Shown: positions 9,542 to 62,960 of the stretch, piece by piece
How the letters are laid out: each line of letters begins with the position of its first letter
How positions within the stretch are numbered: position 1 is the first letter of the stretch
Assembly (NCBI GenBank): GCA_020631075.1
Contig: JAHDHX010000001.1
Span: forward strand, 1 to 64,000
Origin: Candidatus Altimarinota bacterium
Lineage (GTDB): Bacteria; Patescibacteriota; Gracilibacteria; UBA4473
Reading direction: 5' to 3'
DNA: 64,000 nucleotides
The notes under the pieces: generated by a model
Database searches by the model: none
The model's input: the letters and a program-made list of their open reading frames with translations, nothing else
What the model was told of the DNA's origin: nothing
Program-made: the position numbers and the translations under genes

Positions 9542-9557
9542 GCGGAAATTTTACTGA

Positions 9558-9748
9558 GGCAGTGTTCACAAATTGGAAAAAACAGATTGATCCTGAAATA
9601 TAAGGAGGGATTTGAGTGAAAAAAGGCTCTTTTTGGCTGCAAAATGGTGGCGCATTTTTGCCTTGATCCATCAAGGCGGCAAATACGCGCCCATTTTTCG
9701 CTCAAAAATCTCTCTTTTTTCTTCTCAAACCAATTTGTGAACACTACC
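9558..9748. mobile_element. MITE copy 1 (191 bp, terminal inverted repeats)
   Basis: A 191-bp element whose ends are 19-bp inverted repeats, GGCAGTGTTCACAAATTGG on the left and GGTAGTGTTCACAAATTGG reading inward from the right (18 of 19 match). It folds back almost over its whole length around the centre GCCTTGAT-CC-ATCAAGGC. A second copy of the same length and orientation lies at 43345-43535. It is too short to encode a transposase. TA follows the right end and GA precedes the left end. The right end also supplies the last Arg codon and TAG stop of tyrS. Confidence 0.88.
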
Positions 9749-10940
9749 TAGATATAAGTTTAGCCCATTTGCGTTTGCCGCACTTAAGCGTGAGAGGCGT
9801 GGTGGACACTGGCAGGGGGGCGTGGACGTCGGTGATTTTTTGCCCGTTGATCGATACACCGCCACCAGTAATGAGGCGTCTGGCTTCGCTGCTGGAGCTG
9901 GCAAAGCTCGTGACGGTGGTGAGGACGGTGATGAGTGACGCGTCGGGGGGGAGGGCGAACTCGGGGATGTCGGTGGGAATGGCTTTGTCACGGAACTGGG
10001 CGAGGAAGGCGGCTTCGGCGGTGGTGGCGGCTTCGGCGCTGTAGTAGTGGGTGATGATGGCTTTGGCGAGCTCGGATTTGGCCTGGCGGGGGGAGTCGGC
10101 AATTAACTGCTCGGCGGTGGGGAGGTCGACGTCGGTGAGGAGCTCGAAGTATTTGCCCATGAGGCGGTCGGGGAGCTTCATAGTTTTGCCGAACATGTCG
10201 CTGGGGGTGTCGTCGAGGGCGATATAGTTGCCGAGGGATTTGCTCATCTTTTGACTGCCGTCGAGGCCCTCGATGAGGGGAACTGTGATGACGTGCTGCG
10301 GGGACTGGCCGTCGTGTGTCTGCAGAGGGCGGCCTTGCAGGAGATTAAACAGTTGGTCGGTGCCGCCGAGCTCGATGTCGGCCTGGACGGCGACGGAGTC
10401 GTAGCCTTGCATGATGGGGTAGAGGATTTCATGACAGTAGACGGGTTGGCCTTTGTCGGCGCGTTGGCGGAACATATCTCGCTCCATCATCTGGGCGACG
10501 GTGAACTGGCCCATGAGTTGCACAAATTGCTCTGGGGTGAGGGCGGCGAGCCAGTCGGCGTTGTTTCGGACTTCCAAGGTGGTGGTGTCGAGCACGCGGC
10601 TGGCTTGCTGGATGTAAGACTGACCGTTGGCGGCGACTTCAGCCAGGGTGAGGGGGGGGCGGGCTTCGTTTTTGCCCGTGGGGTCGCCGATGGTGGCGGT
10701 GAAGCCGCCGATGATGAGGACGGCCTGATGGCCAGCGTCCTGAAACTGGCGGAGTTTGCGCAGGGGGACGGTGTGGCCGAGGTGGATGTCGGGCTTGGTG
10801 GGGTCGATGCCGAGCTTGACGCGGAGGCGCTCACCCGAGCGGAGGCGGGCGGTGAGCTGGTCACGGACGATGACGTCAACGGTGCCACGGTCGAGCAGGC
10901 GGGCGATGGTGGCGTCGTCGGTGCGAACGGGGGGAAGCAT
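9744..10940 (-). CDS. tyrS: Tyrosyl-tRNA synthetase
   Basis: 398 residues, a class I synthetase. The HIGH-type motif HLGH is at 53-56, KMSKS at 231-235, and an S4-like RNA-binding domain occupies about 335-395. The ATG at 10940 was chosen because upstream residues in the same frame belong to the opposite-strand PAP2 gene region. The final codons (Arg, stop) are formed by the end of the adjacent MITE, so the C-terminus was changed or closed by that insertion. It is divergent from the PAP2-kinase fusion with only 37 bp between starts, and a TACTAT/TATAGC-like -10 can be read for the - strand in that gap. Confidence 0.96.
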   Translation of the reverse strand: MLPPVRTDDATIARLLDRGTVDVIVRDQLTARLRSGERLRVKLGIDPTKPDIHLGHTVPLRKLRQFQDAGHQAVLIIGGFTATIGDPTGKNEARPPLTLAEVAANGQSYIQQASRVLDTTTLEVRNNADWLAALTPEQFVQLMGQFTVAQMMERDMFRQRADKGQPVYCHEILYPIMQGYDSVAVQADIELGGTDQLFNLLQGRPLQTHDGQSPQHVITVPLIEGLDGSQKMSKSLGNYIALDDTPSDMFGKTMKLPDRLMGKYFELLTDVDLPTAEQLIADSPRQAKSELAKAIITHYYSAEAATTAEAAFLAQFRDKAIPTDIPEFALPPDASLITVLTTVTSFASSSSEARRLITGGGVSINGQKITDVHAPLPVSTTPLTLKCGKRKWAKLISR

Positions 10941-18212: not shown

Positions 18213-20885
18213 TTAGCGAAGGGCGGCCTGGGCGGCGGCGATGCGAGCGATGGGCACCCGAAACGGGGAACAGCTGACGTAGCGGAGGCCTTGGCGTTGG
18301 AAAAATTCGATCGAGGTGGGGTCGCCACCGTGCTCACCACAGACGCCGATTTTGAGCTTTGGGTTGGTGGCTTGGCCTTTTTGTACGGCGAGCTCGACCA
18401 ACTGGCCGACGCCGCTCTGGTCGAGGCTGACGAAGGGGTCGCGCTCGATGATGCCTTGGCTCTGGTAGGCGGGCAGAAAGCGGCCAGCGTCGTCCCGCGA
18501 GAGGCCGAGGGTGGTTTGGGTGAGGTCGTTGGTGCCGAAAGAGAAGAAGTCAGCGTGGTGGGCGATCTCGTCGGCGGTGAGGCAGGCACGGGGGAGTTCG
18601 ATCATGGTGCCGATGAGGTACTCGATCGTTTGGCCCTTGGAGTCAAAGACGGCTTGGGCGGCGTCGGTGATGAGCTGACGCTGGAGGGCGAGCTCATGCC
18701 CGTGGCCGACGAGGGGCACCATGATTTCTGGTTTGACGGTCAGGCCCTGGGCCTGGCAGTGAAGGGCCGCCTGCATGAGGGCGGTGACCTGCATGGTGGT
18801 GATCTCTGGGTAAAGCACGCCAAGGCGACAGCCGCGGAGGCCGAGCATGGGGTTGGATTCGTGGAGGGCGTGGATGCGGTCACGCACGGCGTCGAGACTG
18901 AGGCCGAGGGCTTGGGCGACGAGCTTCATTTCGGCTTCTTGCTGGGGGAGGAACTCGTGCAATGGCGGGTCGAGCAAGCGCACGGTGACGGGGAGGCCGT
19001 CCATGGCGGTGAAGATGCCTTCGAAGTCGGATTGCTGGTAGGGAAGAAGGAGGTCGAGGGCTTGCTGGCGTTCGGTGAGGGTGTCGGCCAAGATCATGGC
19101 GCGGACGTGGGTGATGCGGTCACCGTCAAAGAACATGTGTTCGGTTCGGCAGAGTCCGATGCCCTCGGCGCCGAAGTCGCGGGCGGTCTGGGCGTCGGTG
19201 GGGGTGTCGGCGTTGGTGCGGACACGCAGGGTGCGGGTGTCGTCGGCCCATTGCAGGACGGTCATAAGGTCGTCGTCGAGCTGGGCGGGGATGGTGGCGA
19301 CTTTGTCGGCGAGGATCTCGCCCGTGGAGCCATTAAGTGACAGCCAGTCGCCTTTGCGCAGGGTGTGGAGAGTGCCGTCCTTGGTGGTGAGGGTGCAGCG
19401 TTGCTCGGCGTAGTCGATGCTGAGCTCGGTGCAGCCTGACACGCAGCACTTCCCCATGCCACGGGCGACCACGGCGGCGTGGGAGGTCATCCCGCCGCGA
19501 GCGGTCAGCACTCCAGCGGCGGCGTGCATCCCGCTGATGTCTTCAGGCGACGTCTCGACCCGAACTAAGATAGTGGGGTGGCCGGCCTCATGGAGGCTGA
19601 CAGCTTCGGTGGAGTCAAAGCAGATCTGCCCGACGGCGGCCCCTGGTGAAGCGGGGAGGCCCTGGCCCAGCACGGTGACACTGGCGCTGGGGTCAAATGT
19701 CGGGTGGAGGAGTTCGTTGACTTTATGGGGGTCGAGCCGCAGCAGGGCGGTGCGCTGGTCGATGAGGCCTTCGGAGACCATGTCGACGGCGATCTTGACC
19801 ATGGCTTTGGCGGTGCGCTTGCCCGTGCGGGTTTGCAGGAGGTAGAGCTGGCCGTCCTCAATGGTGAACTCGATGTCTTGCATATCGGTGTAATGCGTTT
19901 CGAGTTTTTGCTGGATGGTGTCGAGCTGGGCGTAGACCTCGGGCAGGGCTGACTCAAGAGTCTGAGTGGCGCTGGGGTCGGCTTGGGTGTTTATGGCTTG
20001 GGGGGTGCGGATGCCAGCGACGACGTCTTCGCCCTGGGCGTTGAGGAGGTACTCACCAAAGAAGACTTTTTCCCCAGTGGAAGGGTGGCGCGTGAAGGCG
20101 ACCCCAGTGCCAGAGGTCTGGCCGCGGTTGCCGAAGACCATTGTTTGGATGTTGACGGCGGTGCCGTGGAGGCCGTGCATATCATTAATCTGGCGGTAGG
20201 CGATGGCGCGGGGGTTATTCCATGAGCCGAAGACGGCGTCGGTCGCGGCCCAGAGCTGGGCCATGGGGTCCTGCGGGAAGGTGTGGCCGTGACGGTTAAT
20301 GACTTCCTTATAATGACGAATAACAGTTTGCAGTTGCTCGACGGTGAGGTCGGTGTCTTGGGTGACGTTGTGGGCGGTCTTGACGGCGTCGAGTTCGTGC
20401 TCGAAATCATGATGGGGGATGTCGAGGACCACATTTCCAAACATCTGCAGCAGGCGGCGGTAGGCGTCGAACGCGAAGCGGGGGTTTTGGGTTTTTTCGC
20501 CCAAGGCGACTACGGTTTCGTCGTTGAGGCCAAGATTCAGCACGGTGTCCATCATCCCGGGCATGGACAGCGCCGCGCCAGAGCGCACAGACACCAGCAA
20601 GGGGTCAGGGCCAGTGCCGAAGGTCTTGCCCGTGGTGGCTTGTAGCTCGGTCAGGTGGGTGAGGATTTCGGATTTGAGGGTGGGCCAGAGGGTTTCTTGG
20701 TGCTCCTTATAGTATGCACGGCAGGCCTCGGTGGTGATGGTGAACCCTGGGGGGACGGGGAGGCCGAGCTGGGCCATTTCGGCGAGGTTGGCGCCTTTGC
20801 CCCCAAGGAGAGGTTTGAGCTGGGCAGAGCCTTCGGCGTTTTGGGCGCTGAAGAAGTAGACATATTTCGGAGAACTGTCAGTCAT
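18213..20885 (-). CDS. ppdK: Pyruvate, phosphate dikinase
   Basis: 890 residues with the full three-domain PPDK layout: N-terminal ATP-grasp nucleotide-binding domain, central swivelling domain with catalytic His469 in GGMTSHAAVVARG (Thr467 is the usual regulatory site), and a C-terminal PEP/pyruvate barrel ending near GVCGEHGGDP. It interconverts pyruvate, ATP and phosphate with PEP, AMP and pyrophosphate. With malic enzyme across the divergent gap it suggests a pyruvate-PEP node. A good promoter lies at 20926-20954, and the leader reads CTTCTCTCTTTTGTG before the ATG with no Shine-Dalgarno. No PPDK regulatory protein is visible in the window. Confidence 0.98.
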   Translation of the reverse strand: MTDSSPKYVYFFSAQNAEGSAQLKPLLGGKGANLAEMAQLGLPVPPGFTITTEACRAYYKEHQETLWPTLKSEILTHLTELQATTGKTFGTGPDPLLVSVRSGAALSMPGMMDTVLNLGLNDETVVALGEKTQNPRFAFDAYRRLLQMFGNVVLDIPHHDFEHELDAVKTAHNVTQDTDLTVEQLQTVIRHYKEVINRHGHTFPQDPMAQLWAATDAVFGSWNNPRAIAYRQINDMHGLHGTAVNIQTMVFGNRGQTSGTGVAFTRHPSTGEKVFFGEYLLNAQGEDVVAGIRTPQAINTQADPSATQTLESALPEVYAQLDTIQQKLETHYTDMQDIEFTIEDGQLYLLQTRTGKRTAKAMVKIAVDMVSEGLIDQRTALLRLDPHKVNELLHPTFDPSASVTVLGQGLPASPGAAVGQICFDSTEAVSLHEAGHPTILVRVETSPEDISGMHAAAGVLTARGGMTSHAAVVARGMGKCCVSGCTELSIDYAEQRCTLTTKDGTLHTLRKGDWLSLNGSTGEILADKVATIPAQLDDDLMTVLQWADDTRTLRVRTNADTPTDAQTARDFGAEGIGLCRTEHMFFDGDRITHVRAMILADTLTERQQALDLLLPYQQSDFEGIFTAMDGLPVTVRLLDPPLHEFLPQQEAEMKLVAQALGLSLDAVRDRIHALHESNPMLGLRGCRLGVLYPEITTMQVTALMQAALHCQAQGLTVKPEIMVPLVGHGHELALQRQLITDAAQAVFDSKGQTIEYLIGTMIELPRACLTADEIAHHADFFSFGTNDLTQTTLGLSRDDAGRFLPAYQSQGIIERDPFVSLDQSGVGQLVELAVQKGQATNPKLKIGVCGEHGGDPTSIEFFQRQGLRYVSCSPFRVPIARIAAAQAALR

Positions 20886-20954: not shown

Positions 20955-21038
20955 CAGTTTCAACAAATGATAAACAAAGATAGCCACGGATGTGGCTGAG
21001 TGTGAGTAGGTGAAATGGGGGCTTTTGTTAGAAAATGC

Positions 21039-21066
21039 TTGACGTGTGGCGGTGGGCTATCATCAT
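21039..21066 (+). promoter_or_regulatory. Candidate promoter of the heptad-repeat gene
   Basis: TTGACG (21039-21044), 16 bp, CATCAT (21061-21066). The -35 is strong and the -10 weak (4 of 6). A better hexamer, TATCAT, sits at a 13-bp spacing. The start codon follows about 54 bp later after a C/T-rich leader. Confidence 0.4.
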
Positions 21067-21119: not shown

Positions 21120-22127
21120 ATGATGAAACGTTCTGCTGTGAGTATTGTAGCTGCTGTTGCGCTCATGCTCCCGCTCGTAACCCAAGCGAGTGGATACAAC
21201 TTTAACAACACGGTCACCCGACCGATGTCTGGGCAAACTATGACTTTTGGTGAATTCGACTTCACCATGCCTGAGTTCAAAATCCCTGCTCCAGTGCTCA
21301 ACATCCAAGAGCCAGTGATCACGGTGCAAGAGCCACGAATTAACTTTACACCACCGAAAGTGAACGTGGCTAAGCCACAAATCATTATGGGTGAGCCCAA
21401 CATTCGTATCGCTCAACCGACCATTCGTTTTAATGAGCCAAACTTTGAAATTCCTGCGCCAGTGATCAACGTGAAGACACCAAACATCTCGGTACCTGCA
21501 CCAGCGGTCAACATCAGCGTGCCTGATATCAACGTACAAGCTCCGCCAGTGAACGTAGTGATGCCAGAAATGTTTGTGCCTGCGCCTGAGATCGTGGTTG
21601 ACTTCCCACAACTCGAGTTTGATATGCCGGTGATCGACGTGGAAGTGCCACCGATGGACATCCAAGTGCCGAGCATCGACTTGCAACTTGACCCTATCAC
21701 GGTGGACGTGCCTGCGCTCGACATCGTCGTGCCAGAGCTTGACTTCACTATGCCTGAGATCCGACCAACGTTCTCTATGTCTCAGCCAACTATTTCTATG
21801 TCTATGACTGAGCCAACCATCAGTATGACTGGTGGCACGGGCATCACGATGAGCGAGCCAACTATTAGCATGACCACTGGTGGAGCGGCGATCACGACTA
21901 CTACACCAGCGGTAACTCAAGCGACTACCACAGTCATGCCTGCGTACGGTTACTACTCCGACGTTGACACAGCGGCCACTGGCGCGGTGACAACCACTAC
22001 CGCTGACGTGATGACTTCTGACTTTGACGGTGAGTTTTACAACTCCATCCAAGAGCAAGTCATTGCTGAATTTGCTGCCCAAGGGATCGACATCCCAGAA
22101 GAATGGCTTGAAGAATACGGGAACTAG
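21120..22127 (+). CDS. Exported proline-heptad repeat protein (new family candidate)
   Basis: 335 residues; no named family recognised. A signal peptide (1-23, ending TQA-SG) is followed by 24 unbroken heptads at residues 50-217 of the form x-P-x-(I/V/L/F)-x-(V/I/F)-x, for example EPVITVQ, TPNISVP, VPDINVQ and MPVIDVE. Proline is at position 2 in 23 of the 24 units. The alternating hydrophobic residues suggest a short beta strand per heptad, as in a beta-solenoid or an extended periaxin-like rod. After 217 comes a Ser/Thr/Met-rich segment with repeated EPTISM, then a Thr-rich linker and an acidic C-terminus. Codons are even and GGT/CAA-rich, like the ribosomal genes here and unlike the GTG/GGG-rich neighbours, which suggests high expression. 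ATG at 21120 or 21123; a strong terminator follows. Probably a surface fibre or coat protein (inference). Confidence 0.85.
   Translation: MMKRSAVSIVAAVALMLPLVTQASGYNFNNTVTRPMSGQTMTFGEFDFTMPEFKIPAPVLNIQEPVITVQEPRINFTPPKVNVAKPQIIMGEPNIRIAQPTIRFNEPNFEIPAPVINVKTPNISVPAPAVNISVPDINVQAPPVNVVMPEMFVPAPEIVVDFPQLEFDMPVIDVEVPPMDIQVPSIDLQLDPITVDVPALDIVVPELDFTMPEIRPTFSMSQPTISMSMTEPTISMTGGTGITMSEPTISMTTGGAAITTTTPAVTQATTTVMPAYGYYSDVDTAATGAVTTTTADVMTSDFDGEFYNSIQEQVIAEFAAQGIDIPEEWLEEYGN
21267..21770 (+). repeat. 24 tandem 21-bp coding repeats
   Basis: DNA coding for the 24 heptads of the exported protein. The units are in frame with no insertions or deletions. They are degenerate in nucleotide sequence, which argues for old duplication with selection on the protein pattern rather than recent slippage. 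Confidence 0.85.
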
Positions 22128-22246: not shown

Positions 22247-23389
22247 ATGGCGGATATGCAAGAATTTGCTCGGCGGGCGTTAGCGTTTCGGACGCAGCAC
22301 GGCGGGACGGTGGCGGTGACCCCCAAGGCGGAAGTGAATACGCCCGAAGAGCTGGCAACGCACTATACCCCCGGAATAGGGGCGGTGGCGCAGACGATTG
22401 CCGATGACCCCAGCCAAGCGGCGAAACTGACCATGAAGCGGGACACGGTGGTGGTGGTGTCAGACGGTTCGGCGGTGCTGGGGCTGGGGAATGTGGGGCC
22501 AGCGGCGGCGTTGCCAGTAATGGAAGGAAAAGCGATGCTGTTTCAGGCTTTTGCGGGGATCAATGCGGTGCCGTTGGTGGTGGACACCAATTCGACTGAG
22601 GAGTTTATTACGCTCGTACAGCAGATAGCGCCGACTTTTGGGGGGATTCACTTGGAAGACATTGGGGCACCAGCGTGCTTTGTGATCGAAGATCGTTTGG
22701 CGGAACTGCTGGACGTACCTGTGTTTCATGATGACCAGCATGGTACGGCGATCGTGGTGGTGGCGGCGTTGATCAATGCGTTGCGAGTGACAGAGCGCTC
22801 ACCCGAAACGGTGCGGGTGCTGATAAACGGTGCGGGGGCGGCGGGGGTGGCGATCGGGCGATTGCTCCGTACGTGGGGGGTGACAGACATTGTGATGCTG
22901 GACTCGAAGGGGATCATCACCACGGCGAGGGAAAACCTGCCTGACTATAAGCAAGAGTTTGCTGTGGATGGCCCTGCAGGAGGACTAGCGGACGCGATGG
23001 TGGGGCGTGATATATTCATCGGGGTGTCGAAACCTGGGCTGGTGACGGCGGAAATGATCCAGTCGATGGCGGCTGACCCGATTGTCTGTGCCTTGGCGAA
23101 CCCGATCCCTGAAATATACCCAGAGGAGGCGCTGGCGGCGGGGGCGGCCATTGTCGCGACGGGACGGTCGGACTTCCCGAACCAGATCAATAACGCTTTG
23201 GTCTTCCCTGGTCTCTTTAGGGGGCTCCTGAAGCACCAAGTGCCGAAGGTGACGCCTGAGATAAAACTGGCGGCGGCCCAGGCGGTGGCCAGCATGGTGG
23301 AGTGTCCGACAGGGACGAACCTGTTGCCAGATATTTTCACCTCAGACGTGCATGAGGTGGTCGCTCAGGCGGTGGGGGAAGCGGTGTAG
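22247..23389 (+). CDS. Malic enzyme (NAD(P)-dependent)
   Basis: 380 residues, the short prokaryotic malic enzyme without a phosphotransacetylase tail. Seen: THYTPGIGAV with catalytic Tyr40, the GKAMLF motif with Lys95, metal-binding blocks HLEDIGAPACF and FHDDQHGTA, and a Rossmann GAGAAG loop. It decarboxylates malate oxidatively to pyruvate and CO2. The cofactor preference is not settled by eye. The leader TTCTCTCACTTATTTCAC precedes the ATG, with no Shine-Dalgarno. It ends at a strong bidirectional terminator. Confidence 0.95.
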   Translation: MADMQEFARRALAFRTQHGGTVAVTPKAEVNTPEELATHYTPGIGAVAQTIADDPSQAAKLTMKRDTVVVVSDGSAVLGLGNVGPAAALPVMEGKAMLFQAFAGINAVPLVVDTNSTEEFITLVQQIAPTFGGIHLEDIGAPACFVIEDRLAELLDVPVFHDDQHGTAIVVVAALINALRVTERSPETVRVLINGAGAAGVAIGRLLRTWGVTDIVMLDSKGIITTARENLPDYKQEFAVDGPAGGLADAMVGRDIFIGVSKPGLVTAEMIQSMAADPIVCALANPIPEIYPEEALAAGAAIVATGRSDFPNQINNALVFPGLFRGLLKHQVPKVTPEIKLAAAQAVASMVECPTGTNLLPDIFTSDVHEVVAQAVGEAV

Positions 23390-23457: not shown

Positions 23458-24225
23458 TTACTCGGTGTCGGTGTTGTCGTCGGTTGTCCCGTTGAGGATT
23501 TGCATGGCCTCTTGGGCGGCTTTGATGGCGATGCGGTAGGCTTCGCGGGCTTCACGGGTGGCGCGCAGTCCGTTGGTGATGGCTTCTTTTTTCCCTTCGA
23601 CTTCAGAGACTTCGGCGAAGAACTCACTGGCGAGGGTGAATTTTTCTTCTGCCATGGTGAGACCTGTTTCGACCTGTGTGATGAGGGTGTCTAGGTCAGT
23701 GGTGTCACCACTGAAAGCGTCGCGCTGGGTGGTGAGGTGGTCGAGGATGGCGGTTTTGCGGACCTCTAAAGCGGACAAGCGGGCGCTGAGGTGTCGGCCC
23801 CAGGTGTTCGTGATTTCGGCGCGATTTTTTTCGACGTAGGCGCGGGTTTCTTTCACTCGACGGCGAAAATTTTTGTTGTCGGCGTTCTGCATGGTTTGCA
23901 GTTTCTTGGCCAGGCCGTTTTTTCGTTTCTCGAGGGCTTCGCGGTAGCGTTGCTTTCTGGCGGCGGAAATATTGGGACTGTTTTCGATCAGCTTCATGCT
24001 GCGTTCATATCGTTTCTCGAACCGTTGGACGGCGTCTTGTGTCCTTTGGGTGAGGGCGGTGCGTTTGTCAGCGCGTTGCTGCCAAAATGGCCCGACTTCG
24101 CCGTTGGTCATGCGGAAGACTTTTTTGCCTTGGAAGGTGTCAGCGTCTGGGGTTTGGGCTTGGCTTACGCCAGGGGCGATGAAGAGACCAAGGCCGAGGA
24201 GCCCGATGAGGAGGGGTGTTTTCAT
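23458..24225 (-). CDS. Secreted alpha-helical (coiled-coil) protein, unknown
   Basis: 255 residues. A signal peptide (1-23, ending SQA-Q) precedes a long charged helical region (about 50-235) rich in Arg, Lys, Glu, Ala and Gln with heptad-like spacing, then a Thr/Asp-rich tail. There are no cysteines or catalytic motifs. It resembles periplasmic or extracellular coiled-coil proteins (OmpH-like size, but no family signature). It has its own unit, convergent with malic enzyme. The function is unknown. Confidence 0.75.
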   Translation of the reverse strand: MKTPLLIGLLGLGLFIAPGVSQAQTPDADTFQGKKVFRMTNGEVGPFWQQRADKRTALTQRTQDAVQRFEKRYERSMKLIENSPNISAARKQRYREALEKRKNGLAKKLQTMQNADNKNFRRRVKETRAYVEKNRAEITNTWGRHLSARLSALEVRKTAILDHLTTQRDAFSGDTTDLDTLITQVETGLTMAEEKFTLASEFFAEVSEVEGKKEAITNGLRATREAREAYRIAIKAAQEAMQILNGTTDDNTDTE

Positions 24226-42673: not shown

Positions 42674-43345
42674 ATGACTGCCCTGACTGGAGGCCCACTG
42701 TGGGTGACGAACCTAAAAAACTATGAACTGACGACGGGGGAGGCGCTGCACAGACTAATGGCGGCGCATGACGCTGCGCAAGCCGAAACAGGGGCGGAAA
42801 TAATGGTGGCGGGGTCGGTGCTGGACGTCGCGATGCTAGCGGCGCAATATGAAACGCCCGTGCTGTCGCAGCACGCTGACCCGCTGGGGTGGGGGAAGCA
42901 CACTGGCCACGTGGTGCTGCCCAAGCTGGCGGCGGTGGGCGCGAGGGGGACGCTGCTCAACCACTCTGAACGGCGGATGAACCCTGCGGTGATAGCGGAA
43001 ACTGTCCGCCAAGCGGAAGCGGAAGGCTTGCTGACGATTGTCTGTGCGGAGAGCCCAGCGGAAGTCGAACAGTTGGCGGCACTGAAGCCGTCGATGATCG
43101 CGTATGAGCCGCCAGAGCTGATCGGGTCGACGGGGGCGTCGGTGGCTTCGGCCAAGCCAGAGTCGATTGCGGAGTCGGTGCGGCTGGCAGGGGGGATCCC
43201 CCTGCTGGTGGGGGCGGGGGTGAGCCGTGTGGAGGACGTGGAAGTGTCGCTGGAGCTGGGGGCGAGGGGGTTCCTGGTCGCGACGGCGGTGGTGAAGGCG
43301 ACTGACCCGCTTGAAAAACTAAAAGAGTTTGTAGGGGCGTTTTAG
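42674..43345 (+). CDS. tpiA: Triosephosphate isomerase, archaeal type
   Basis: 223 residues, shorter than the 250-residue bacterial enzyme. The motifs are those of archaeal TIMs: NLKNYEL with Lys15, LLNHSERRM with His97 as electrophile, and AYEPPELIGS with catalytic Glu145; then a phosphate-binding GAGVSRVEDV and the final ARGFLVATAVV. It interconverts dihydroxyacetone phosphate and glyceraldehyde 3-phosphate. The ATG at 42674 removes 21 non-conserved upstream codons. The TAG stop is formed by the TA duplication plus the first G of the MITE. Confidence 0.93.
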   Translation: MTALTGGPLWVTNLKNYELTTGEALHRLMAAHDAAQAETGAEIMVAGSVLDVAMLAAQYETPVLSQHADPLGWGKHTGHVVLPKLAAVGARGTLLNHSERRMNPAVIAETVRQAEAEGLLTIVCAESPAEVEQLAALKPSMIAYEPPELIGSTGASVASAKPESIAESVRLAGGIPLLVGAGVSRVEDVEVSLELGARGFLVATAVVKATDPLEKLKEFVGAF

Positions 43346-43535
43346 GGAGTGTTCACAAATTGGAAAAAGTAGATTGATTTTGAAGTATGAGGAGGGGTTT
43401 GAGTGAAAAAAGGATCTTTTTGGCTGCAAAATGGTTGCGTATTTTTGCCTTGATCCATCAAGGCTGCAAATACGCGCCCATTTTTCGCTCAAAAATCTCT
43501 CTTTTTTCTTCTCAAACCAATTTGTGGACACTCCC
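43345..43535. mobile_element. MITE copy 2 (191 bp, flanked by TA)
   Basis: The same element as at 9558-9748, same length and orientation. Ends GGGAGTGTTCACAAATTGG and, reading inward from the right, GGGAGTGTCCACAAATTGG (18 of 19 match). TA flanks both sides (43343-43344 and 43536-43537), the target duplication of IS630/Tc1/mariner-type transposition. The body folds back around GCCTTGAT-CC-ATCAAGGC. It sits exactly between the stop codons of convergent tpiA and the delta' gene, and could now act as their terminator. Confidence 0.9.
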
Positions 43536-44284
43536 TAAGACTGTTTCTGGGCCCTTTTAAGCACGAATCGCTCCAGCGTTGCGCGCATATTGGCGTTGCG
43601 TTCGAGCCTTTGGTAGGTGTCGAGCGCGAGGTCGAGCCACTGGCGTTGACTGGGGGTGCGGCAGAGCTCGACGAGCTCGCGTGCATAGGTGCGTACAAGC
43701 CCTCGTCCGTCTTCGCTTTTCTTGGCGGCCTTGTGCAGGGCTTCGATCTGTCGAAATTGGCCCACGAGTGACGCTTCACCCAGCAAAGCGCGTGCGCTGC
43801 TGTCGGGGGCAACGGTGAAATCCAATGTGGGGAGGACTATGACCTGCACTCGGGAGAGGATAGTGTCGAGGAGCTGGTGGTGGTTGGCGGTGGTGAGGAT
43901 GAACCGTACGCCTGCTGGGGGTTCTTCGAGGAGTTTGAGCAGGGCGTGGGGGGCTTCTCTGGTGGCGCGCTCTATGTGCTCGATGATCACTATCCGCCAC
44001 GGCGAATCGCCCCGCGACTGGTGGCACCAGCGCATGACCCCCCTGACGGATTCGTATTCGCCCTGGCCGTCGCGCACGGCGGCGTCGCTGTGGTCTATTT
44101 TCAGGGATTTGCCCTGGTCACGCAGGATGAGCGTGTCGAGGTTTCGTTCTATGGCTTGGGGGGGAACGTCTTGCAGCCCTGCGGCGAGCTCGAGCGCGAG
44201 GGTGAGCCCGTCACCACCACTCAGCAGTAGGCGCTGGGGTAAACGCCCAGTGGTCATCATGGCTCGTACCTGCGCTTCGGTCAT
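43535..44284 (-). CDS. holB: DNA polymerase III delta' subunit
   Basis: 249 residues. The recognisable core is the clamp-loader pattern with RIVIIEHIERATREAPHALLKLLEEPPAGVRFILTT split over about 95-130, followed by a sensor-like SRVQ near 143. There is no P-loop, as expected for delta'. It helps load the sliding clamp. The C-terminal third is helical and divergent. It overlaps the upstream DUF4349 gene by ATGA. The last codon and TAG stop come from the MITE end. Confidence 0.82.
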   Translation of the reverse strand: MTEAQVRAMMTTGRLPQRLLLSGGDGLTLALELAAGLQDVPPQAIERNLDTLILRDQGKSLKIDHSDAAVRDGQGEYESVRGVMRWCHQSRGDSPWRIVIIEHIERATREAPHALLKLLEEPPAGVRFILTTANHHQLLDTILSRVQVIVLPTLDFTVAPDSSARALLGEASLVGQFRQIEALHKAAKKSEDGRGLVRTYARELVELCRTPSQRQWLDLALDTYQRLERNANMRATLERFVLKRAQKQS

Positions 44285-50499: not shown

Positions 50500-51132
50500 A
50501 TGCAAATGAGCATAAATCTCTGGTCTGACGCGTTTGAGATTATAAGCATAGCGATTGGGGTTGGGTTTGTGAATGGAGCAATCCCTGGTCCATTATTAGC
50601 ATTGATGTGTGTGAGAATTTTGGATAAGGGGTACTTTTCTGCCATGAGAGTTCCGTTCCTTGCGGTAGGAGTGGTGGGAATAGTAGTAGCAAGTGCTTTT
50701 TTGGGAATTCTCCATTATTTGGAAGAAATTCCTGAAAAATCGTACAGATTGCTAACTTTTCTAGGAGGTTTTTATCTGTTGTTTTTGGGTCAAAAAGTGG
50801 CAAGAAAAAAACAAATATCACAGAATTTTGACTTAATTACTGATGGTCAAATCGTGATAGCGACTTTGCTCAACGGGAGTCTGTGGTGGTCATGGTTGAT
50901 TGTATTTTTACCCCAGGCATTGGCGTTGGGGGAATTATTTAATGGTGGGGAGTGGGTTTTTCTTATTCTGTATCAATTTGCTTGGGTAATGGGTTTTTTG
51001 GCAATGGGAGGACTTTTTTCTTTAGGGAGAAGACACTTCGTACAGAGTAAGTCAGTGAATTTTATTTTTCGTTTTTTTGGATCTGTATTGTTTGTTTTAG
51101 GAATTTTTATGATAAGGGCGGCGTGGAAATGA
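50500..51132 (+). CDS. LysE family exporter
   Basis: 210 residues, about six membrane helices. The first helix block GVGFVNGAIPGPLLALM is the LysE/RhtB signature (family: ....PGP.....). Such proteins export amino acids or related small molecules. The gene is clearly more AT-rich than its neighbours (TTT, ATT and AAA codons dominate), which suggests recent transfer. No terminator or partner is visible, and it ends 25 bp before the MFS gene. The substrate is unknown. Confidence 0.82.
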   Translation: MQMSINLWSDAFEIISIAIGVGFVNGAIPGPLLALMCVRILDKGYFSAMRVPFLAVGVVGIVVASAFLGILHYLEEIPEKSYRLLTFLGGFYLLFLGQKVARKKQISQNFDLITDGQIVIATLLNGSLWWSWLIVFLPQALALGELFNGGEWVFLILYQFAWVMGFLAMGGLFSLGRRHFVQSKSVNFIFRFFGSVLFVLGIFMIRAAWK

Positions 51133-62673: not shown

Positions 62674-62786
62674 AGGGGGTGTCTCTGTCACGGGGGGTGG
62701 CTTGATTGAAGATTTCGGTATGTGAAAAGCACTGCTTGGATGACAAGGGGTGTTTTTTGGTTTTGGTTGGTTAGAGGGGTTTGCTG

Positions 62787-62960
62787 GTGCCGACCAAATG
62801 CCCTGACCAACGACACGCTGAACAAATGGCGCTGCGCAATCCACGAAAGCTGTACGAACGGCCGTGCGGCGAGTGTGGGGAGATGATGCAGACAACGTAC
62901 GCACCCGATAGGCCAGAGCGAGTGCTGTGTGAGGGATGCTATCTGGCGGTGGTGCGGTGA
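62787..62960 (+). CDS. Small CPR-type zinc-ribbon protein
   Basis: 57 residues from a GTG at 62787. The pattern RPCGECGEMMQTTYAPDRPE followed by VLCEGCY gives two CxxC pairs of a type seen repeatedly in CPR genomes (as a C-terminal piece or as a stand-alone protein); its role is not known. One more Cys lies near the start (PTKC). The start is supported by AGAGGGG 8 bp upstream, one of the few Shine-Dalgarno-like sites here; an ATG 13 codons later is the alternative. Confidence 0.7.
   Translation: MPTKCPDQRHAEQMALRNPRKLYERPCGECGEMMQTTYAPDRPERVLCEGCYLAVVR

What the first reader, a model, noticed from the sequence alone, without database searches (positions are those of the whole stretch)
21120..22127. 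Exported protein made of 24 unbroken proline heptads
After a signal peptide, residues 50-217 consist of 24 in-phase 7-residue units x-P-x-(I/V/L/F)-x-(V/I/F)-x with no insertions. Proline is at position 2 in 23 of the 24. I know of no named bacterial family with this exact pattern; periaxin/AHNAK-like repeats in animals are the nearest analogy. Codon use resembles the ribosomal genes here and the gene has its own strong terminator, both of which suggest abundance. It may be a surface fibre, coat or host-contact protein.
Basis: partly seen in the sequence, partly recalled or inferred. Interest (0 to 1): 0.82.

Follow-up and report, generated by a model that had tools for sequence, protein, structure and literature searches.

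The report
Exported CPR proline-heptad rod protein
A tiny-genome bacterium exports an apparently very abundant protein built from about two dozen perfectly in-step seven-residue proline units; its nearest sequence match is a repeat we found in bacteriophage portal proteins, so it may be a phage-like beta-structured rod used on the bacterium's own surface.

Summary
Residues 50-217 of the 335-aa ORF (window 21120-22127, +) are 24 in-phase heptads x-P-x-phi-x-phi-x, with P at position 2 in 23 of 24; a 25th (43-49) has G. Between units, only codon positions 1-2 of P and position 2 of the two phi codons are conserved, so selection on the protein keeps the pattern, not recent DNA duplication. No Pfam, NCBIfam or PDB match; PHROGs gives nothing significant for A. 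Relatives: a 530-aa exported paralogue (B) on the same contig with more than 30 in-phase heptads, a 14-residue super-period and a C-terminal HTH...HNH cluster; nothing credible in 353 class or 380 phylum genomes. Naive codon similarity to ribosomal genes is a strand artefact, but controlling for strand the gene ranks 1 of 68, suggesting high expression. The claim that the pattern is unknown needs correcting: diverged P-x-phi-x-phi heptads form C-terminal tails of phage portal proteins (hhalign 96%, E 2e-9), and single such units occur in solved phage spikes (P2 gpV, R-pyocin). Best model, moderate confidence: an exported oligomeric beta-helical rod, probably surface-located. The fold is unproven; both AlphaFold runs were uninformative.

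The parts
21120..22127 (+). heptad protein A, 335 aa CDS
   Evidence: upstream in-frame ATG at 21015 disfavoured because the ATG at 21120 begins the signal peptide
21120..21188 (+). probable Sec/SPase I signal peptide, residues 1-23
   Evidence: sequence by eye: KR n-region, hydrophobic core, TQA|SG site; no lipobox, no C-terminal membrane anchor or LPXTG seen
21246..21266 (+). heptad 0, FGEFDFT, G instead of P
   Evidence: in phase with the array
21267..21770 (+). 24 in-phase heptads, residues 50-217; first 12 units +7/-6 charges, last 12 units +1/-16
21771..22019 (+). Thr/Ser-rich region with out-of-phase PTISM elements, residues 218-300
22020..22124 (+). acidic C-terminal tail, residues 301-335 (0 basic, 10 acidic), predicted partly helical at low confidence
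   Evidence: no second copy in the genome
22156..22189 (+). intrinsic terminator
21039..21066 (+). weak sigma70-like match (TTGACG-16-CATCAT), 9 of 12; number of such sites equals chance

Best explanation
A is an exported structural protein that, through its heptads, folds with one short beta-strand per unit: P2, phi4 and phi6 face inward, 3, 5 and 7/1' outward, with a corner at 7-1', giving a slender beta-helical rod. The most likely version is an oligomeric, probably trimeric, triple-stranded beta-helix of the kind in phage spikes. By inference from a 4.8 A strand spacing, 24 units would give about 11-12 nm. The Thr/Ser-rich region and acidic tail would be a linker and a free or binding end. 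The product is probably abundant and sits on or near the cell surface. The paralogue B is a longer rod, with an HxH pair at its C-terminus that resembles the metal-binding tip motif of phage spikes. Shown: repeats, paralogue, codon signal, profile similarity to phage portal-tail heptads. Inferred: export (signal read by eye), fold, oligomer state, surface location, function.
For: Regular phi-x-phi heptads kept at protein level. B has in-phase heptads, hydrophobic period 7.0 over residues 151-450 (power 29, p 0.002). Profile of A and B (A1) against phage heptad tails, mostly portals (A3): hhalign prob 96%, E 2e-9; three of the parent proteins scanned are portals by Pfam PF04860/PF05136, i.e. 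oligomeric virion proteins. A1 against segments of solved or homologous spike beta-helices (A5): prob 33%, E 5e-4; A3 against A5: 82%, E 1e-5. Comparison profiles lower: YadA head 0.03%, hexapeptide control 2%. P2 gpV (solved, 3qr8) contains VTLDTPEVVC and an HTHKH tip; B ends VHTHADGVTHNHAY (two HxH in last 40 residues, p 5e-5 by shuffling). PMC6116203 reports an HxH motif binding iron in trimeric spikes and fibres; PMC4576200 describes the 100 A long, 30 A wide triple-stranded helix of T4 gp5. Codon signal for high expression: rank 1 of 68 plus-strand genes, 0.29 against 0.06 for the next.
Against: AlphaFold2 gave pLDDT 38 (A) and 34.5 (B) from single sequences, so no structural support. A1 comes from only two proteins and the compared repeats are low in complexity, so hhalign values may reflect shared pattern, not ancestry. 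The A1-A5 match is weak and A5 was assembled by hand. Spikes have only short, irregular heptad stretches. Proline in every strand limits backbone hydrogen bonding. B's 14-residue super-period (p about 0.005) fits a two-sided roll at least as well. Similar heptads in tape-measure-like phage proteins (L387, L311) need not be beta-helical. No anchor to the cell was found.
Confidence: 0.4

Rival explanations
1. Monomeric two-sided beta-solenoid (beta-roll) with two heptads, 14 residues, per coil: 12 coils in A, about 5.8 nm; B about 10 nm. Analogous in coil size to the 14-residue YadA head.
For: B's prolines have a significant 14-residue super-period (p 0.005; P peak at 14/3); in A the 14-residue P signal has p 0.009 among 15 tests; no 21-residue signal in either. 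14-residue beta-rolls exist in solved trimeric adhesins (PMC9543794) and YadA_head proteins occur in three same-family relatives.
Against: No sequence match to PF05658 or to a YadA-head profile; conserved G of those repeats absent. In an intertwined trimer the three faces are equivalent, so absence of a 21-residue period is not decisive.
Confidence: 0.3
2. Extended or disordered, elastic or spacer-like proline-rich chain, comparable to the PEVK-type region of periaxin.
For: Proline every seventh residue; AlphaFold shows no structure; PMC7072810 describes the long tail of periaxin as predicted disordered.
Against: 33 of 48 phi positions are I or V; strict conservation of both phi positions with free third bases suggests a packed core; charges are few and concentrated in the second half of the array.
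Confidence: 0.15
3. Heptad gene acquired from a phage (portal or tape-measure type) and joined to a signal peptide, function secondary or none.
For: Profile similarity to phage heptad tails.
Against: No portal or other phage domain in A or B; no other heptad protein in the genome; no Phage_base_V; flanked by PPDK and malic enzyme; codon use adapted more than any plus-strand neighbour.
Confidence: 0.08
4. Product of recent DNA tandem duplication without selected protein structure.
For: Most other matches to the DNA pattern in public genomes are 21-bp tandem repeats.
Against: Free-base identity between units is 0.34 in A, the lowest of all; the other genome matches are 0.53 or higher, overall median 0.85.
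Confidence: 0.01

Closest known systems
C-terminal heptad tails of phage portal proteins (PF04860, PF05136), e.g. L261, L304, L333, L280 in IMG/VR
   Same: P-x-phi-x-phi-x-x heptads in phase, diverged at DNA level; profile match prob 96%, E 2e-9
   Different: about 6-11 units against 24; attached to a portal domain and often ending in a RDExGR-type tail; no signal peptide; no name or structure found for the repeat here
Triple-stranded beta-helix of contractile-tail central spikes (P2 gpV 3qr8, R2 pyocin 4s36/4s37, Mu gp45; PF18715 Phage_spike, PF18946 Apex)
   Same: roughly seven residues per strand with single P-x-phi-x-phi units; HxH near the C-terminus shared with paralogue B
   Different: spikes have short irregular heptads, an OB domain (PF04717), no signal peptide; A has no His at all; only weak profile similarity
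YadA-type 14-residue beta-roll head (PF05658)
   Same: two seven-residue sides per coil; exported; present in same-family relatives
   Different: G-based turns, no P array; no sequence match
AHNAK / periaxin repeats (animals)
   Different: intracellular, PDZ-containing, repeat units of about 128 residues in AHNAK (PMC10682155); no sequences available here to test
Lak megaphage protein of about 1370-1390 aa (L151, L152)
   Same: 14-residue units of two heptads; tblastn E 2e-3
   Different: other residues in the turns; no Pfam match for the one scanned; no signal peptide seen

Membership tests
Phage central spike (gpV) | Phage_base_V OB domain and Phage_spike domain | tested here: not met
   no such Pfam hit for A or B up to E 10; PF04717 absent from the genome
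Phage central spike (gpV) | triple-stranded intertwined beta-helix | not testable with these tools
   no oligomer prediction available; monomer AF2 was uninformative
Phage central spike (gpV) | HxH metal-binding apex | tested here: inconclusive
   absent in A; B has HTH and HNH at 509-519 but no PF18946 match
Phage portal protein | portal domain PF04860/PF05136 | tested here: not met
   for A, for B
Phage portal protein | P-x-phi-x-phi heptad tail (found in some portals, not a defining feature) | tested here: met
YadA-like adhesin head | PF05658 repeat with conserved G | tested here: not met
AHNAK/periaxin | N-terminal PDZ domain | tested here: not met
   the protein begins with a signal peptide
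AHNAK/periaxin | homologous repeat units | not testable with these tools
   no animal sequences searchable
Cell-wall-anchored surface protein | LPXTG, lipobox or known anchoring domain | tested here: not met
   sequence by eye; no Pfam domain

The most novel reading that the evidence does not exclude
A CPR bacterium has turned a phage-type heptad beta-helix into its own exported, highly expressed trimeric surface rods: one proline-heptad shaft (A) and one longer rod with a metal-binding HxH tip (B), used to contact host cells or to coat the cell.
Probability: 0.15. Interest if true: 0.85.

Novelty: new variant of a known kind. Interest (0 to 1): 0.52.

Why it matters
If the rod model holds, this is a genome-encoded, exported and strictly regular heptad beta-structure outside phages, in a lineage whose host-contact proteins are mostly unknown. 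It links an unnamed repeat in phage portal tails, solved phage spikes and a bacterial surface protein through one seven-residue unit. A clean 24-unit array would also be a useful minimal scaffold for studying beta-helix folding and fibre design.

Tried and rejected
AlphaFold2 of A and B without homologues: pLDDT 38 and 34.5, not used; no fold search was run on them. Close-homologue scans of genome contigs and viral contigs: none. Weak hits in relatives (L004-L009), plasmids (L222, L223) and the phylum (E 0.003-0.008) were judged chance: unrelated, unannotated or stop-interrupted sequence, or very short matches at about the number expected for the genomes searched. T-only phi-x-phi DNA pattern over the class: swamped by AT-rich and antisense sequence. 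Naive CAI: strand artefact. Synteny at the malic enzyme in relatives: no positional counterpart of A seen within the flanks held. The A6 hexapeptide control was typed from general knowledge of the motif, not taken from a database.

Full report
Observation. The ORF at 21120-22127 (+) encodes 335 residues. After a signal-peptide-like start come 24 heptads (residues 50-217) with P at position 2 in 23 of 24 and hydrophobic residues at 4 and 6 (one exception, a P at 6). One more in-phase unit (43-49, FGEFDFT) precedes them. Shuffled sequence never reached more than 12 P in register in 2000 trials. Codon-position analysis shows that what is conserved between units is the first two bases of the proline codon and the second base of the phi codons, while third bases are near random. 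This separates A from the other DNA matches to the pattern in public genomes: free-base identity is 0.34 in A, while the genome contigs stretches have 0.53 or more, overall median 0.85, and are mostly 21-bp tandem repeats, many with stops.

Surroundings. A stands alone: PPDK runs away from it upstream (18213-20885, -), malic enzyme follows (22247-23389, +), and an 11-pair terminator lies between. S5 is followed directly by L15 with no L30 between them, which from general knowledge is consistent with CPR. Ribosomal codon similarity must be read with care: nearly every plus-strand gene in the window scores 0.65-0.79 and every minus-strand gene 0.58 or less. Controlling for strand, A has C-ending codons at AAC 15/16, GAC 15/17, TAC 6/6, ATC 22/31, with CAA 14/15 and raised GGT and ACT, and ranks first of 68 plus-strand genes on the 230-kb contig in C-ending codons minus GC at fourfold sites, 0.29 against 0.06 for the next. 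This is the usual sign of strong translational selection, so high expression is likely but not shown.

Relatives. B (530 aa, contig C3 139815-141407) also starts with a signal-peptide-like stretch and has in-phase heptads over most of residues 151-450, with P or G in the turns; its prolines have a 14-residue super-period. A profile from both (A1) finds only A and B in 353 genomes of the class and nothing credible in 380 of the phylum. Pfam, NCBIfam and PDB give no significant match to either protein; PHROGs gives only weak, unnamed matches, the best being B to phrog_13784 at E 0.004. The genus is represented here by one genome, so the family looks lineage-specific, within the limits of what was searched.

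Phage link. Among them are proteins in which the heptads are diverged at DNA level (0.42-0.57), many of them portal proteins with C-terminal tails such as PTVNVAAPTVNVEPPMVMFESPEVRVAAPNVNVESPKVEVTN; of five full-length proteins scanned, Pfam names three portals, at E 1e-87 to 7e-34. hhalign of A1 against ten such heptad stretches gives 96%, E 2e-9. Against short segments of gpV-type spikes it gives 33%, E 5e-4, against YadA heads 0.03% and a hexapeptide control 2%. The spike segments as a profile recover solved structures 3qr7, 3qr8, 4s36, 4s37 and Mu gp45. P2 gpV carries VTLDTPEVVC and ends with an HTHKH-containing tip; B ends in VHTHADGVTHNHAYNITDAYMAN, a cluster not expected by chance (p 5e-5). 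The literature read here reports iron bound by an HxH motif in such trimers (PMC6116203) and describes the T4 gp5 triple-stranded helix (PMC4576200).

Interpretation. The repeat geometry (P2, phi4, phi6 on one side of a strand, corner at 7-1') fits one strand per heptad. Whether the strands belong to an intertwined trimer or to a two-sided 14-residue roll is not settled: the phage comparison favours the former, B's 14-residue period the latter. Monomer AlphaFold runs without homologues were uninformative, which fits either an intertwined oligomer or simply the lack of an alignment. Function is inferred from export, apparent abundance and regularity: a rod or fibre on the cell surface, by analogy with spikes and adhesin stalks. 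Absence of a recognisable anchor is an open point.

Verdict. A and B remain an unnamed, apparently lineage-restricted pair. I rate it a new variant of a known kind of repeat, interest 0.52.

Noticed in passing
G000 contig C3 139815-141407 (L010:7816-9408): 530-aa exported paralogue with in-phase heptads, own terminator-like sequence, and C-terminal HTH...HNH cluster.
   Followed up: yes
L261, L304, L333, L280, L296, L347 and others (IMG/VR contigs): Phage proteins, including portals of two Pfam families, carry diverged P-x-phi-x-phi heptad tails, many ending in a RDExGR-type motif; no name for this repeat was found.
   Followed up: partly
L387:1-2733 and L311: Long phage proteins, tape-measure-like by eye, with many P-x-phi-x-phi units (dozens in L387).
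   Followed up: no
L151, L152 (Lak megaphages A1, B5): A protein of about 1370-1390 aa with 14-residue PEFNLDKSDQNYVS-like repeats in its C-terminal half; no Pfam match for the one scanned (L151).
   Followed up: partly
G002, G003, G012 (same family): Exported proteins with YadA_head repeats, absent from this genome at the cut-off used.
   Followed up: partly
whole window: Strong strand asymmetry in codon use: plus-strand genes mostly score 0.65-0.79 by ribosomal CAI, minus-strand genes 0.58 or less.
   Followed up: yes
9557-9750 and 43344-43537: 194-bp repeat, 93% identical, with a further 96-bp copy at contig C3 80293-80387.
   Followed up: no
62781-62960: Short plus-strand ORF resembling the cysteine-rich end of the 549-aa protein at L010:2731-4380; possible gene remnant.
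   Followed up: no
23458-24225: 255-aa exported, charged, probably helical protein without Pfam match, next to malic enzyme.
   Followed up: no
50500-51132: Low-GC (0.39) ORF of 210 aa, possibly recently acquired.
   Followed up: no
L115:4641-5324 (Brevibacillus porteri) and L103:3435-4784 (Omnitrophota): Other bacterial proteins with shorter or less diverged P-x-phi-x-phi heptads; the latter has a FecR domain.
   Followed up: partly
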